From an uncultured Rhodospirillales bacterium (GTDB lineage: Bacteria > Pseudomonadota > Alphaproteobacteria > RF32 > CAG-239): a stretch of 64,000 nucleotides of DNA. Positions 4,071 to 42,374 of this stretch are shown piece by piece (the first letter of the stretch is position 1; the number at the start of each line of letters is the position of its first letter). The translations under genes were made by a program, and so were the position numbers. The notes under the pieces are model-generated. The model had not been told where the DNA came from and made no database searches. It saw only the letters and a list, made by a program, of their open reading frames with translations. The stretch spans positions 1-64,000 of the forward strand of contig CACWLK010000013.1 in assembly GCA_902761715.1 (NCBI GenBank). Reading direction: 5' to 3'.

Positions 4071-5744
4071 ATGGCCGATATGAGTGAAATTGAAAAAAGA
4101 TTTGATATCCACGAAATTGCTAAAAACAAAAATCAAGACTTAGACCGTTATCAGTGTAACATTTATTGCTGCCATTCCACCGGTTGTAAATCATCGGGTA
4201 GTGATGAAATTTTGGACCTGATGCAAAAAGCCATCGAAGAACATGAGTTGCAAGGCAAAGTCCGTATTGTAGCCACAGGCTGCATGGGTCTCTGTGCACA
4301 AGGTCCGTTAATTCGCGTTGAAATTAAAGGTCAAAAAGATGTTTTATACAAACGTGTTGAACCGTTAATTTCCCGCATTATCATTACCGAACACGTTGTT
4401 CCGGCTCTAAAACTCGAGCCCGGACAAGAATTTACCTTGCCTGACTTTTTGCAAAAATATGTTCTGTCGCTGGATTTGCCTTTCTTCAAAAAACAAGAAA
4501 AAGTCGTTTTGAAGATGGCCGGACACTTAGACCCCGAAGATATTCAGGAATATATTGCCAACGGCGGTTATTTGGCCCTGGAAAAAGTCTTAAAAACCAT
4601 GACCCCGCAACAGGTAATTGAAGAAATCAAAAAATCAGGTCTGCGCGGACGTGGCGGTGCCGGTTTCTCTACCGGTATGAAATGGGAGTTTGCCTCTAAA
4701 GTCAAAGCCGTAGATGACAAATTCATCATCTGTAACGGTGATGAGGGTGACCCCGGTGCCTATATGGACCGTAGTATTTTGGAATCCAACCCGCACTCGG
4801 TTATTGAAGGCATGATGATTGCCGCTTATGCAATCGGTGCTACTGAAGGTTGGTTCTATATCCGTGCTGAATATCCGTTGGCCGTTGAACGTATCGAAAA
4901 AGCCATTAAAGCTTGTAAGAAAAACCGCTTACTCGGCAACAATATTATGGGCACCAACTTTAGCTTTAATATTGATATCCGTCTTGGCGCCGGTGCCTTT
5001 GTTTGCGGTGAAGAAACTGCTCTTATCCACTCTATTGAGGGCAACCGCGGCACACCTCGTCCTCGTCCGCCTTATCCGACAGATAAAGGTTTGTGGGGCA
5101 AACCGAGTTGTATTAACAACGTTGAAACCCTTGCCAACATTTCTTCAATTATCATCAAAGGTGCTGACTGGTTTTCATCTTTTGGTACTGCAACTTCAAA
5201 AGGCACAAAGGTATTTGCTCTTACCGGTCAGGTTGAACACTCCGGTCTTATTGAAGTTCCGATGGGTACCACTATCAACGAAATCGTTAACGAAATCGGC
5301 GGTGGCGTTCCTAATGGCAAAAAGCTTAAAGCCGTTCAAACCGGTGGACCTTCCGGCGGTGTAATTCCTACCGAATACATCAATCTTCCGCTCTGTTATG
5401 ATGAGCTCAAAAAAGTCGGTTCAATTATGGGTTCCGGCGGTATGATTGTTATTGACGACAGTTCGGACATGGTTGACTTAGCAAAATTCTACCTTGACTT
5501 TACCGTTGATGAATCTTGCGGAAAATGCGCTCCTTGCCGTATCGGTGGCAAGCAAATGCTACTCTTGCTTGAAAAAATCAGCAAAGGTCGTGGAACCAAA
5601 GAAGATATTGCCCAACTCCGTCAAATTGCAACTGCTATGCAAAAAGCATCATTGTGCGGTTTGGGACAAACAGCACCTAACCCCGTACTTTCTACCTTGC
5701 GTTTCTTTGGTGAAGAGTACGAAGCAAAAGTTGCAAAAAAATAA
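4071..5744 (+). CDS. hydB: NuoF-like flavoprotein (HydB-type) of [FeFe] hydrogenase
   Basis: NADH- and FMN-binding subunit, 557 residues. The N-terminal 110 residues form a thioredoxin-like [2Fe-2S] domain (CCHSTGCKSSG, CMGLCAQGPLI). The NuoF core follows, with the glycine-rich NADH/FMN site GLRGRGGAGFSTGMKWEF (about residue 190), CNGDEGDPGAYMDR, GAGAFVCGEETAL and an SLBB segment. The 4Fe-4S motif ESCGKCAPCRIGGKQ lies near residue 480. It lacks the extra C-terminal 2[4Fe-4S] domain seen in the longer Thermotoga HydB. Such trimeric enzymes couple NADH and ferredoxin oxidation to H2 formation, or the reverse; the direction here is inferred. Confidence 0.9.
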   Translation: MADMSEIEKRFDIHEIAKNKNQDLDRYQCNIYCCHSTGCKSSGSDEILDLMQKAIEEHELQGKVRIVATGCMGLCAQGPLIRVEIKGQKDVLYKRVEPLISRIIITEHVVPALKLEPGQEFTLPDFLQKYVLSLDLPFFKKQEKVVLKMAGHLDPEDIQEYIANGGYLALEKVLKTMTPQQVIEEIKKSGLRGRGGAGFSTGMKWEFASKVKAVDDKFIICNGDEGDPGAYMDRSILESNPHSVIEGMMIAAYAIGATEGWFYIRAEYPLAVERIEKAIKACKKNRLLGNNIMGTNFSFNIDIRLGAGAFVCGEETALIHSIEGNRGTPRPRPPYPTDKGLWGKPSCINNVETLANISSIIIKGADWFSSFGTATSKGTKVFALTGQVEHSGLIEVPMGTTINEIVNEIGGGVPNGKKLKAVQTGGPSGGVIPTEYINLPLCYDELKKVGSIMGSGGMIVIDDSSDMVDLAKFYLDFTVDESCGKCAPCRIGGKQMLLLLEKISKGRGTKEDIAQLRQIATAMQKASLCGLGQTAPNPVLSTLRFFGEEYEAKVAKK

Positions 5745-38539: not shown

Positions 38540-39187
38540 ATGGACAGTGCGACACCTCGCTACACAGAAACCCAAATCAGCGCCGGTAAAAACCTTTTTA
38601 CCTCTGATTGCTCTTTTATGTTAGGTGTTGCTTCCCTAAGTCAACTTCCGCCTGATAATGTCCTTGATGAGATTGCCTTTGCCGGACGTTCCAATGTCGG
38701 AAAATCCAGCCTGATTAACGCCCTCACCGGTCGCAAGACTTTGGCCAAAACATCTAATACCCCTGGGCGCACTCAACAATTAAATTATTTTAATTTGGCT
38801 GACCAGCTATATATTGTTGACATGCCCGGCTACGGCTTTGCTCAAGCTCCGGATTCGCTCGTTAAAAAATGGCAAAAAATGATTTTTGCTTATCTGCAGG
38901 GACGTGTAAACTTAAAGCGTGTCTTTTTGCTGATAGATTCGCGCCACGGTATCAAAAAGGTTGATTCTGAAATTATGGAAATGCTTGATAAAGCCGCCGT
39001 CAACTACCAAATTGTTTTGACCAAAACCGACAAGATTTCCGCAGTCGAGTTAGCCAAAGTCATCAACGAAACCAATAAAATAATCAAAGAGCATGCCGCC
39101 GCTCATATCAACCTTATTGCCACCAGTTCTGAAAAAAATCGCGGAATTGATGAATTGCGTGCCGAAATCGCCGGAATTTTAAAATAG
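38540..39187 (+). CDS. engB: Ribosome biogenesis GTP-binding protein EngB/YsxC
   Basis: The 215-residue GTPase has G1 FAGRSNVGKSSLINAL (about residue 55), G2 NTPGRTQQLNYF, G3 VDMPGYGFA (about 95), G4 TKTDK (about 155) and G5 SSEKNRGID. It is involved in late 50S assembly. It starts 3 bp after the yidC stop and ends the rpmH-engB block. Confidence 0.95.
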   Translation: MDSATPRYTETQISAGKNLFTSDCSFMLGVASLSQLPPDNVLDEIAFAGRSNVGKSSLINALTGRKTLAKTSNTPGRTQQLNYFNLADQLYIVDMPGYGFAQAPDSLVKKWQKMIFAYLQGRVNLKRVFLLIDSRHGIKKVDSEIMEMLDKAAVNYQIVLTKTDKISAVELAKVINETNKIIKEHAAAHINLIATSSEKNRGIDELRAEIAGILK

Positions 39188-39265
39188 AAAATTAGACAAA
39201 AAAATATTGTCTATTCACATAAAATTTGCTACTATAATGTCATAAGCAACGCCTCGGAGATTTAC

Positions 39266-40123
39266 ATGGAAAAAAATCAGGGCACAGAAAAAGGTATGGT
39301 AATTTTTGATATTGACGGTGTAGTTAATAGCTTTTCCAACCACCGTTTTTATTACAATTTTATGCGCCAATCCATAAAAGGCCTCGCCAAAGTACGAGGT
39401 CATCGTGCGCTCGCCGTTCAACTGCCCGAAATACGAAAGATAGGCGGTCCTAATGCAATGTTTGCTTTTGCTCACCAATACTGCGGCGATGGGCAAGCTT
39501 TTGACAAATTCTCTCGCGACCTTATTAAAAACCTTAATTTTGACCAAATCAACCATGATCCGTCGCTATGCAAATTTATCAAAAGATTGAGCAACTATGG
39601 CGACCTTGCTGTGCGTAGTGATGGTCTCACTCCTATTGCCGCCGCAGCGTGGATGCGGGTAGTTGAAAACAAATCAGATGCCGAAATCAAAAAAGAAATT
39701 TTATTCTCCCCGAAACAATCAACAACAACTCGATATATCGATGACAAACCGGTGCTTGTCAGCGGTATTGATGACAATGGCATGAGAACCAAGACCGACG
39801 TTCAAAGCTGGCTTGATTTTGCCGAACGTAATAAATGCGATCTCCATCAATCTGTACTTTTGGACGACAGTCGGGAAAACCTCAAAATTGCCAAAGAACT
39901 GGGCATGACAACTATCCACATCAGCAAACTTGACAGTTTGCTAAAATCTTCCGTATTCGGTTGCGGATTGTCCGACATTATCGGGGACCGTATGTCAGAT
40001 TCGCTTAAACGTTGCAAACTAACCTGCGGAAAAAATGTTGACGCCCGCACTTTGTTCCGTGTACTCTTAAAACAACCTAATCGCATTGGTAAATTTAACA
40101 GATTTACATACAACAGCAGATAA
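39266..40123 (+). CDS. HAD-superfamily hydrolase-like protein
   Basis: The 285-residue protein has HAD motif I MVIFDIDGVVNSF (nucleophile Asp and acid/base Asp, about residues 14-16), a possible motif II in LAVRSDGLTP, and motif IV LLDDSRENLKIAKELGMTTIHI (about residue 200). The phosphate-handling core is intact. The substrate is unknown. It is the first of four closely spaced plus-strand genes: 18 bp separate it from the 80-residue protein that precedes the zeta-like kinase. It may therefore belong to the same unit. Confidence 0.7.
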   Translation: MEKNQGTEKGMVIFDIDGVVNSFSNHRFYYNFMRQSIKGLAKVRGHRALAVQLPEIRKIGGPNAMFAFAHQYCGDGQAFDKFSRDLIKNLNFDQINHDPSLCKFIKRLSNYGDLAVRSDGLTPIAAAAWMRVVENKSDAEIKKEILFSPKQSTTTRYIDDKPVLVSGIDDNGMRTKTDVQSWLDFAERNKCDLHQSVLLDDSRENLKIAKELGMTTIHISKLDSLLKSSVFGCGLSDIIGDRMSDSLKRCKLTCGKNVDARTLFRVLLKQPNRIGKFNRFTYNSR

Positions 40124-40141
40124 TTTTTGGGAAGACACCTA

Positions 40142-40384
40142 ATGAACAAAAAAGTTGAACAGCGCATAGACAATATCGAAAACGCTAATTTTATAATTTT
40201 AAACTTAATCCAAAAACTCTCGGTTTTATCCCAAAATTGTGATGAAACCACTGCTCAAACTTACAAACAGCAGATTCTCCAGTTGCAAAAAGACCTCAAA
40301 CATCTGGATAATCCTCAAATTTTTGCTAAAGTACAAAACACATATATGCCATACTTAAAACAGTTATTGGAGACCGATAAATGA
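40142..40384 (+). CDS. Small helical protein, possible antitoxin of the zeta-like kinase
   Basis: An 80-residue protein of almost purely helical character (NKKVEQRIDNIENANFIILN, then QQILQLQKDLKHLD, then TYMPYLKQLLETD), a three-helix pattern. No family is recognised. ATG at 40142 with GGGAAG upstream is preferred to TTG at 40127. It overlaps the zeta-like gene in ATGA. Size, helical make-up and position match epsilon-type antitoxins, which precede zeta toxins, but no sequence similarity is claimed. Confidence 0.55.
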   Translation: MNKKVEQRIDNIENANFIILNLIQKLSVLSQNCDETTAQTYKQQILQLQKDLKHLDNPQIFAKVQNTYMPYLKQLLETDK

Positions 40385-41304
40385 CCGAATACGCCCCACT
40401 TCTCTCACCTAAAGAACACGAAAAATGGGTTAACGAGTTAATTATTCCGACTTTTACACAAGGTCGCTCCCCCGCAAAAAATCCGACATTTATTTTAATT
40501 ACCGGACAACCGGGCGCCGGAAAAAGCTATTCTTCACATCGCTATGCTCAAGAACACCTTGAACAAACTCCGGTACTTTTTGGCGCTGACGACATCAGAG
40601 CCTTACACCCTCAAGCCGAGGAAATCATGCGCACCGACCGCGCTAACTATCCGTTTATTACCAAAAAAGATTCCGGCTTAGCCCGAGCCAAGCTCCTCGA
40701 TTACTGTTTTCAACATGGCTACAATATTGTTGTTGAAAGTATTCTTTCCAGCAAGGATGACTATAAAATGCCGACGCTTCTTCAGGCTCGTGAACAGGGT
40801 TATCGGGTTGAGTGTGCAGCACTTGCTGTACACCGCAGTATCAGCGAAGTTTCAATTTTCTGGCGACAGGAAGAACAGCTCGCCATCACTAAAGAAATCG
40901 GCTTTCCCCCAACTCTCGAGATTCATGATCAGGTTTATTCATGGTTACCACACATTTTGGCCAACATGAACGACTATCATACCGTTGACAAGCTCAGCAT
41001 TTACACTCGTTCATACCAATGCTACTATGACAGCGATGTAGATCCGAAAGACCCGATTTATATAAAACAACGCATGAAAGAAGGGCGCAACAGCTACCTC
41101 AACCTTGAAGACATGAGCGATGTTGCCATCAAATGGCGGGAAGTATTGCGTATGATGGTAGCACGCGGTGCCTCTCAAAAAGAAATTGACAACGTTCGTG
41201 AACTAAGCGCCAACTTTATGAAAAACTCAGGACTTACCATGTCTTCTGAATTCAGAAATTACTCGGCTTTGCTTGATCAAATTAAACGAGGCGGCAGAGA
41301 CTGA
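40381..41304 (+). CDS. Zeta-toxin-family P-loop kinase
   Basis: The 307-residue protein carries the zeta/PezT layout: Walker A LITGQPGAGKSYSSHRYA (about residue 40), the catalytic Asp segment FGADDIRALHP (about 70), VVESILSSKDDY (substrate-side Glu/Ser, about 120), and a lid with basic residues (FWRQEEQLAITKE). Characterised zeta toxins phosphorylate UDP-N-acetylglucosamine and block peptidoglycan synthesis. Here activity is inferred. The C-terminal 90 residues (MKEGRNSYLNLEDMSDVAI and later) are an extra helical region. ATGA overlap links it to the upstream small protein and TGATG to the downstream phosphatase. Confidence 0.78.
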   Translation: MTEYAPLLSPKEHEKWVNELIIPTFTQGRSPAKNPTFILITGQPGAGKSYSSHRYAQEHLEQTPVLFGADDIRALHPQAEEIMRTDRANYPFITKKDSGLARAKLLDYCFQHGYNIVVESILSSKDDYKMPTLLQAREQGYRVECAALAVHRSISEVSIFWRQEEQLAITKEIGFPPTLEIHDQVYSWLPHILANMNDYHTVDKLSIYTRSYQCYYDSDVDPKDPIYIKQRMKEGRNSYLNLEDMSDVAIKWREVLRMMVARGASQKEIDNVRELSANFMKNSGLTMSSEFRNYSALLDQIKRGGRD

Positions 41305-41888
41305 TGAAAAAGACATTTTATATTTTTCGCCACGGACAAAGCAGCTACAACCTCGCCGGACGCACACAGGGACAAACCAACGATTCGGTCTTGACCGAAC
41401 TCGGACAACAGCAGGCTATCCAAGTCGGACAAAGACTGCAAGACAAGCATATAGAGCTCATTTTATGCTCGCCTTTGGTTCGTGCACGCCAAACTGCAGA
41501 GCTGGTCAATCGCAGTCTTAATGTCCCGATTATCTACGACAACCGCTTTATTGAGGTCAACGTTGGAGAAATAGAAGGCTTGCACTATACTGAAATAATG
41601 GAAAAATATGGCGAAAAATACCAGCAATGGCGCAGTTCTGATCAACAATTTGAAAACTTGCGTTTTAATGGCGGAGAAAGCAAAAAAGAAGTCCGCCAAC
41701 GTGTTTTTGCTGGTTTGCAGGAATACGCCGAACAATCACCTTACTCCGTGATTGCTGTTTCTTCTCACGGCATCATGCTGACACAACTGTTTATTGCTTT
41801 GGGAGAAAAAGCCGTAGATATCCCCAACGGCTCAATTTTACAGCTCGAATACCAAGACAATTCATGGAAAATCATCGGACTTATATAA
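41304..41888 (+). CDS. Histidine phosphatase family (PGAM-like) protein
   Basis: The 194-residue protein begins MKKTFYIFRHGQSSYNLAG: RHG is the phospho-histidine motif. It continues with TELGQQQAIQVGQRL, LCSPLVRARQTAEL (second Arg), VNVGEIEG (acid Glu) and VSSHGIMLTQL (second catalytic His, about residue 155). All active-site residues are present. The substrate could be a phosphosugar, nucleotide or alpha-ribazole phosphate. Translational coupling to the zeta-like kinase suggests a linked role (inference). Confidence 0.82.
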   Translation: MKKTFYIFRHGQSSYNLAGRTQGQTNDSVLTELGQQQAIQVGQRLQDKHIELILCSPLVRARQTAELVNRSLNVPIIYDNRFIEVNVGEIEGLHYTEIMEKYGEKYQQWRSSDQQFENLRFNGGESKKEVRQRVFAGLQEYAEQSPYSVIAVSSHGIMLTQLFIALGEKAVDIPNGSILQLEYQDNSWKIIGLI

Positions 41889-41910
41889 TCTGGTTTTGTA
41901 TCGAATTGAA

Positions 41911-41999
41911 CGAACTCACAAGTTCGAAGCCCGCCAAATTTAAAAACATAAAACCCCTCTTTAATCGAGGGGTTCATAATGGCGCGCTCGGCGGATGGC
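41911..41999 (-). repeat. 89-bp tRNA-Arg-derived repeat, copy 1
   Basis: The unit contains a hairpin (cgaact/agttcg) extended by a TpsiC-like gttcgaagcccgcc, then a terminator hairpin aacccctc/gaggggtt (about 41951-41974). It closes with tggcgcgctcggcgg, identical to the 3' acceptor end of tRNA-Arg(ACG). It is directly tandem to copy 2. Confidence 0.85.
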
Positions 42000-42088
42000 C
42001 GAACTCACAAGTTCGAAGCCCGCCGGATTTAAAAACATAAAACCCCTCTTTAATCGAGGGGTTCATAATGGCGCGCTCGGCGGACGGC
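42000..42088 (-). repeat. 89-bp tRNA-Arg-derived repeat, copy 2
   Basis: Same unit as copy 1 with two or three base changes (ggattt for aaattt, gacggcc for gatggcc). It adjoins copy 1 without a gap. Confidence 0.85.
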
Positions 42089-42195
42089 CGCAGAAAAAAT
42101 TGCTCTAACGCAGTTTTTTCAAGGAGACACAATGAGGCTTGATTTTGTAAGCAAGATTTCATCGAAGCGAAACAAAATCTTTAGCCGGAATTGAA

Positions 42196-42284
42196 CGAAC
42201 TCACAAGTTCGAAGCCCGCCAAATTTAAAAACATAAAACCCCTCTTTAATCGAGGGGTTCATAATGGCGCGCTCGGCGGATGGC
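42196..42284 (-). repeat. 89-bp tRNA-Arg-derived repeat, copy 3
   Basis: Third unit, including the terminator (about 42236-42259) that serves tRNA-Arg(ACG) on the minus strand. Its left flank tttagccggaattgaacgaac matches the block at positions 9-29 of this window. Confidence 0.85.
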
Positions 42285-42297
42285 CGGGGGGTTATAA

Positions 42298-42374
42298 TGG
42301 CGCGCTCGGCGGGATTCGAACTCACAACCTTCTGATCCGTAGTCAGATGCTCTATCCAATTGAGCTACGAGCGC
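42298..42374 (-). tRNA. tRNA-Arg (anticodon ACG)
   Basis: A 77-nt cloverleaf: acceptor GCGCTCG/CGAGCGC, discriminator G, encoded CCA, D-arm TAGCTCAATTGGATAGAGC. The anticodon stem TCTGA/TCAGA encloses CTACGGA (anticodon ACG, read as ICG), and the TpsiC arm is GTGAGTTCGAATCCCGC. It is followed on its own strand by the repeat array. Confidence 0.94.

What the first reader, a model, noticed from the sequence alone, without database searches (positions are those of the whole stretch)
39266..41888. Zeta-kinase cassette with HAD and histidine-phosphatase partners
Four same-strand genes: HAD phosphatase, 80-aa three-helix protein, zeta/PezT-like kinase with intact P-loop and Asp/Glu residues, and PGAM-type phosphatase. 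The last three are coupled by ATGA and TGATG overlaps. Known epsilon/zeta systems lack attached phosphatases. A kinase that makes a phosphorylated nucleotide sugar plus two phosphatase folds could be a toxin, antitoxin and detoxification module, a reversible wall-synthesis switch, or an anti-phage system.
Basis: partly seen in the sequence, partly recalled or inferred. Interest (0 to 1): 0.68.

Follow-up and report, generated by a model that had tools for sequence, protein, structure and literature searches.

The report
Zeta kinase, helper and phosphatase trio
A toxin-like zeta kinase, a small three-helix protein that probably restrains it and a phosphatase that could undo its product form a conserved, mobile three-gene unit in one family of gut and rumen bacteria; we found no published zeta toxin with a built-in phosphatase.

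Summary
The HAD gene is not part of the unit: relatives carry it after engB without the others, and the sampled trio-bearing relatives lack it. The other three are a real module. Every assessable locus of this zeta clade (21 of 21 genomes, 5 genera) keeps small protein, kinase and histidine phosphatase side by side. The phosphatase lies upstream in most genomes but downstream in one nested clade that includes this window, so it changed sides without losing contact. About 38 other zeta loci have no such neighbour. The kinase is a full-length zeta fold (Z 26.9) with intact P-loop, catalytic Asp and Arg158 equivalents. In all members the UDP-GlcNAc motif GTxR is replaced and zeta Arg171 is Phe, so UDP-GlcNAc is doubtful. 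The small protein models as a three-helix bundle; PezA's toxin-binding domain matches over its full length, not above background. The phosphatase catalytic residues are invariant. Likeliest: a zeta toxin with a binding antitoxin and a product-reversing phosphatase, resembling the published faRel operon. Toxicity, binding, substrate and reversal are inferred. New variant of a known kind; no prior description found in the open papers searched.

The parts
40142..40384 (+). 80-aa three-helix protein, putative antitoxin
   Evidence: kept next to the kinase in 21/21 loci; AlphaFold pLDDT 85.5, helices 3-31, 35-52, 58-79; PezA 68-154 aligned over all 80 residues, Z 6.6, not above helical background.
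40381..41304 (+). Zeta/PezT-fold kinase, putative toxin
   Evidence: Zeta_toxin E 3e-31; model Z 26.9 over 272 residues to zeta 3q8x; P-loop K48, D70, R162 invariant in 21 relatives; GTxR motif and R171 lost.
41304..41888 (+). Branch-1 histidine phosphatase (PGAM type), putative product-reversing enzyme
   Evidence: His_Phos_1 E 1e-44; RHGQS, R60, E84, H155 invariant in 20 relatives.
40381..40384 (+). ATGA stop/start overlap, small protein to kinase
   Evidence: overlap or gap of -16 to +15 nt in 21 loci.
41302..41306 (+). TGATG stop/start overlap, kinase to phosphatase
   Evidence: -1 to -4 nt in the four loci of this order; PGAM-small gap is -25 to +27 nt in the other order.
39266..40123 (+). 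HAD-like gene: adjacent, judged NOT part of the module
   Evidence: Present after engB without the trio in G011 and G002; absent from trio-bearing G007, G014, G023.

Best explanation
A three-gene toxin-antitoxin variant. The zeta-fold kinase phosphorylates a small molecule, probably a nucleotide or nucleotide sugar other than or besides UDP-GlcNAc, and so stops growth. The 80-aa three-helix protein binds and silences it as epsilon/PezA do. The histidine phosphatase removes the phosphate that the kinase added, keeping leaky activity harmless and allowing recovery. Shown: genes, folds, intact catalytic residues, conserved three-way linkage, single change of order with contact kept, patchy presence. 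Inferred: toxicity, binding, substrate, and that kinase and phosphatase share a metabolite.
For: Trio intact in every assessable locus of the clade (22 genomes of 152 in the family; one contig cut inside the kinase; 21/21 small, 21/21 phosphatase including one contig-edge fragment). Two gene orders; small-zeta-PGAM is one clade nested among PGAM-small-zeta loci. About 38 control zeta loci in family, class and phylum have no PGAM neighbour. Several different flanking contexts. In this genus the engB-tRNA interval holds HAD+trio, trio, HAD, other genes, or nothing. Relatedness of the trio contradicts EngB: g3 trio proteins are closer to this one than g12's, EngB the reverse, so the set seems to move together. 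Full zeta fold. Published precedent: faRel is flanked by a type II-like antitoxin and a hydrolase that neutralises the toxic product (PMC11782079).
Against: No experiment. The antitoxin fold match is within background and no sequence link to epsilon/PezA or to the partner proteins of other zetas was found. UNAG-binding residues are lost, so toxicity by the known route cannot be assumed. The same phosphatase subfamily occurs without a kinase, beside an antiporter, so it has a life of its own. In G153 the phosphatase groups with the antiporter-linked ones.
Confidence: 0.5

Rival explanations
1. A metabolic kinase/phosphatase switch, not a toxin: kinase and phosphatase make and remove one regulatory phosphometabolite, as the fused P-loop kinase and histidine phosphatase of PFK-2/FBPase-2 do; the small protein is a regulator.
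For: Both catalytic sites are intact and conserved; the phosphatase is the most conserved member (52-75% identity to the window copy). PFK-2/FBPase-2 structures match both halves (phosphatase E 2e-14; kinase Z about 11). UNAG motif lost.
Against: Patchy presence (22 of 152 genomes), varying sites and discordant relatedness look like an accessory unit rather than core metabolism; the kinase is far closer to zeta toxins (Z 26.9) than to PFK-2 (Z 11).
Confidence: 0.22
2. An ordinary two-gene zeta toxin-antitoxin pair that happens to sit beside a phosphatase gene of unrelated function.
For: The phosphatase subfamily is wider than the kinase clade and sits beside a Na+/H+ exchanger-type gene without kinase in G021, G022 and G013.
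Against: 21/21 retention, change of side with contact kept, overlapping reading frames, joint relocation to different sites.
Confidence: 0.16
3. An anti-phage abortive-infection module in which the kinase is released on infection.
For: Patchy, tRNA-adjacent variable site; some toxSAS toxin-antitoxin systems act against phage (abstracts).
Against: No PADLOC match beyond a marginal mad8 P-loop hit; not in viral contigs by pattern scan; no defence genes recognised beside it.
Confidence: 0.07
4. The four-gene cassette of the first reader, with HAD as a second phosphatase of the same system.
For: 18-nt gap, same strand, likely co-transcription in this genome.
Against: HAD and trio occur apart in relatives.
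Confidence: 0.03

Closest known systems
PezAT (Streptococcus pneumoniae) and epsilon/zeta (pSM19035) toxin-antitoxin systems
   Same: Full-length zeta/PezT fold (Z 24-27), P-loop Lys, catalytic Asp, Arg158 equivalent, small three-helix partner encoded just upstream.
   Different: GTxR UNAG motif replaced by [STC]-I-L-x, Arg171 replaced by Phe, partner unrelated in sequence and without PezA's DNA-binding part, plus a dedicated histidine phosphatase.
Non-canonical zeta kinases: Rv0366c (PezT-Mtb), AvrRxo1, gonococcal zeta1
   Same: Zeta fold with altered substrate site; Rv0366c also lacks GTxR (PMC6362051); AvrRxo1 Z 14 and zeta1 Z 11.5.
   Different: None reported with a phosphatase in the papers read; both AvrRxo1 and zeta1 match far less well than PezT and zeta.
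faRel toxSAS operon (Cellulomonas marina)
   Same: Toxin gene kept with both a type II-like antitoxin and an enzyme that neutralises the toxic product (PMC11782079).
   Different: Different toxin chemistry and proteins; the reversing enzyme there is a small alarmone hydrolase; reversal is reported there, only inferred here.
PFK-2/FBPase-2 bifunctional enzyme
   Same: P-loop kinase paired with a branch-1 histidine phosphatase.
   Different: Fused, metabolic, kinase only distantly similar; no small partner.

Membership tests
epsilon/zeta-PezAT toxin-antitoxin | Zeta kinase fold with P-loop Lys and catalytic Asp | tested here: met
   K48 and D70 in 21/21; Z 26.9 to 3q8x.
epsilon/zeta-PezAT toxin-antitoxin | UNAG-binding GTxR motif (zeta 117-121; Thr118, Arg120) | tested here: not met
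   I in place of Thr118 and L in place of Gly119 in 21/21; Arg120 never present. Thr128 is kept in 21/21; the Glu100 position is variable.
epsilon/zeta-PezAT toxin-antitoxin | Nucleotide-contact Arg158, Arg171 and Glu116 | tested here: inconclusive
   R158 kept 21/21; R171 is Phe 21/21; E116 kept as E or D (12/9). By sequence alignment, not by a liganded structure.
epsilon/zeta-PezAT toxin-antitoxin | Small three-helix antitoxin encoded next to the toxin | tested here: inconclusive
   Adjacent 80-aa three-helix model; PezA match Z 6.6 tied with unrelated bundles; no sequence match.
epsilon/zeta-PezAT toxin-antitoxin | Kinase toxic, partner neutralises it by binding | not testable with these tools
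   Needs expression and binding assays.
Branch-1 histidine phosphatases (His_Phos_1) | RHG motif, second Arg, catalytic Glu, second His | tested here: met
   R9 H10 G11, R60, E84, H155 invariant in 20/20.
Branch-1 histidine phosphatases (His_Phos_1) | Membership in a named activity (CobC, PspA, GpmB, SixA) | tested here: not met
   The window protein is far below all NCBIfam cutoffs, e.g. CobC 105 vs 163 bits; other members match the same models.
Known anti-phage defence systems (PADLOC) | Match to a system profile | tested here: not met
   only mad8, E 0.0024, on the kinase's P-loop region.
Tripartite TA with product-reversing enzyme (faRel-like) | Third gene's enzyme destroys the toxin's product | not testable with these tools
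   Architecture is analogous only; enzymology needed.

The most novel reading that the evidence does not exclude
A new tripartite zeta system in which a kinase toxin with a new small-molecule substrate is held by a binding antitoxin and its product is actively dephosphorylated by a dedicated histidine phosphatase, giving a reversible growth switch.
Probability: 0.35. Interest if true: 0.7.

Novelty: new variant of a known kind. Interest (0 to 1): 0.5.

Why it matters
Zeta toxins are widespread toxin-antitoxin effectors. As far as the open papers searched here show, no enzyme that takes the phosphate off their products has been named. A phosphatase fixed beside a zeta kinase offers a directly testable candidate for such reversal, and the changed substrate pocket points to a target other than UDP-GlcNAc. 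It would add a second chemistry to the rare class of toxin-antitoxin operons with both a binding and an enzymatic antidote.

Tried and rejected
HAD as a member: rejected by relatives. Phage or plasmid origin: no viral-contig relatives of kinase or phosphatase; plasmid and phage-record zetas reach only about 30% identity. A sequence link between the 80-aa protein and the 92-98-aa partners of other zetas of the family: hhalign probability 4%. Foldseek of the small model: nothing below E 1. A promoter directly before the trio: promoter-like sites at the chance level (6 vs 6.2 expected). Kinase clade outside the family: none in 385 genomes of the class at comparable score, and all 15 genome-contig hits are titled Alphaproteobacteria, Rhodospirillales or proteobacterium. 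Literature searches combining zeta toxin with histidine phosphatase, phosphoglycerate mutase or UNAG-3P dephosphorylation returned no papers; antitoxin with histidine phosphatase gave only unrelated ones. One search was malformed and gave nothing. A joint model of small protein and kinase could not be made with single-chain folding.

Full report
What is there. The window lies in a 1.43 Mb genome in 26 contigs; the nearest named relatives are rumen and gut Alphaproteobacteria MAGs. At 38540-41888 the order is engB, HAD-like gene, 80-aa gene, zeta kinase, histidine phosphatase, all on +. ATGA joins small gene and kinase, TGATG joins kinase and phosphatase.

The HAD gene is a neighbour, not a member. 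Strong HAD relatives exist in G011 and G002 directly after engB without any trio, and in G028 elsewhere. Trio-bearing G007, G014 and G023 have no HAD match. In this genus the interval between engB and the tRNA-Arg/lipoprotein side is variable: HAD+trio here, trio alone in G007, HAD in G011 and G002, two unrelated genes in G008, and only 79 bp between the matching flanks in G012, whose flanks are 83-85% identical to ours. A shared variable site is enough to explain why HAD and trio are adjacent here.

The three-gene unit is real. A profile of four kinases found 22 strongly matching kinases in 152 genomes of the family. One contig begins inside the kinase. In all 21 others the small gene is directly upstream of the kinase, and in all 21 the phosphatase is next to the pair, one of them as a fragment at a contig edge. 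Spacing is -25 to +27 nt, mostly overlapping. Two orders occur: PGAM-small-zeta in genus g12, in G153 (g10) and in G141 (g3), and small-zeta-PGAM in G000, G007 (g1), G014 and G137 (g3). On the kinase tree the second order is one clade nested within the first, so the phosphatase changed sides once and stayed in contact. About 38 other zeta-type loci from the same family, class and phylum have no phosphatase of this kind within 1.5 kb.

The unit moves. It lies after engB, in a glycosyltransferase region, beside a Na+/H+ exchanger-type gene, or behind an alpha/beta hydrolase; in G094 a MazG-type gene precedes it and TldD/TldE-type genes follow. EngB of this genome is closer to g12 (66-69%) than to g3 (60-62%), but the kinase and phosphatase are closer to g3 (kinase 56-65%, phosphatase 72-75%) than to g12 (44%, 62-65%). 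That fits transfer of the whole unit. Pairwise distances of the three proteins correlate (r 0.82-0.86), which common descent alone would also give.

Origin of the phosphatase. It belongs to a well-supported subfamily that also has kinase-free members, three of them beside a Na+/H+ exchanger gene. The phosphatase of G153, whose kinase branches first (support 92/88), groups with these (98/89). Either the unit was born beside the antiporter and later moved, or the pair met this phosphatase subfamily twice; the data do not decide.

The kinase. Sequence: PezT E 8e-25, zeta E 3e-17. Model: pLDDT 90.8, Z 26.9 over 272 residues to zeta 3q8x, Z 24.4 to PezT. Mapped through the HMMER alignments, P-loop Lys, D70 (zeta D67) and R162 (zeta R158) are invariant, position 119 (zeta E116) is E or D, and T132 (zeta T128) is invariant. 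The UNAG motif GTxR (PMC3062530; PMC6362051) is replaced by [STC]-I-L-x and R171 by Phe in all 21. In PezT a Thr-to-Val change at the Thr118 equivalent is reported as non-toxic, so unchanged UNAG chemistry is unlikely. This rests on sequence alignment.

The small protein. No family match above cutoff. AlphaFold gives a three-helix bundle (pLDDT 85.5). VIA-align places PezA residues 68-154 second, over all 80 residues (Z 6.6, rmsd 3.5), but unrelated bundles score alike, so this is suggestive only. Streptococcal epsilon antitoxins are three-helix bundles whose first helix reaches into the active site and blocks ATP binding (PMC5923241).

The phosphatase. Catalytic residues are invariant in 20 of 20. 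The window protein meets no curated activity model, so its substrate is open.

Mechanism. The best account is a zeta toxin with a binding antitoxin and an enzymatic antidote. The nearest working precedent is faRel, whose toxin gene is flanked by a type II-like antitoxin and a hydrolase that neutralises the toxic product (PMC11782079). The main rival is a metabolic kinase/phosphatase switch. Growth inhibition, binding, the substrate and product reversal are all untested.

Limits. Members are MAGs of one bacterial family and are not independent; 21 of 21 should not be read as a probability. The control profile could miss very divergent phosphatases. The papers searched are open-licence only.

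Noticed in passing
window 41903-42312: Three 99-nt direct repeats carry a terminator-like hairpin and a copy of the 3' end of the adjacent tRNA-Arg(acg) gene (42298-42374, - strand); the 13-nt tRNA end occurs 4 times against 0.03 expected. Copy number differs in G012 and G008. Resembles the rtT repeats of E. coli tyrT (from memory).
   Followed up: partly
window 39188-42300; L161, L162: The engB to tRNA-Arg interval is a hot spot of gene content in this genus; G008 has two proteins there (252 and 224 aa, L162:3664-4422 and 4542-5216) without Pfam matches.
   Followed up: partly
L099:2829-8610: In G094 the trio sits in an apparent operon with an alpha/beta hydrolase-like gene and a MazG-domain gene upstream and TldD/TldE-type metallopeptidases downstream; G101 (L100) looks the same by eye.
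   Followed up: no
L061, L062, L064: A sister histidine phosphatase (48-54% identity) sits next to a Na+/H+ exchanger-family gene, without any kinase, in three genera (Pfam checked on L061 only).
   Followed up: partly
L167:3256-4020 (own genome, contig C20): A second Zeta_toxin-family kinase (E 3e-19) in the same genome, with no histidine phosphatase neighbour.
   Followed up: no
window 39266-40123: The HAD-like protein has a partial match to a phage polynucleotide kinase family (phrog_415, E 8e-8, residues 134-175) and a marginal PNKP-phosphatase hit.
   Followed up: no
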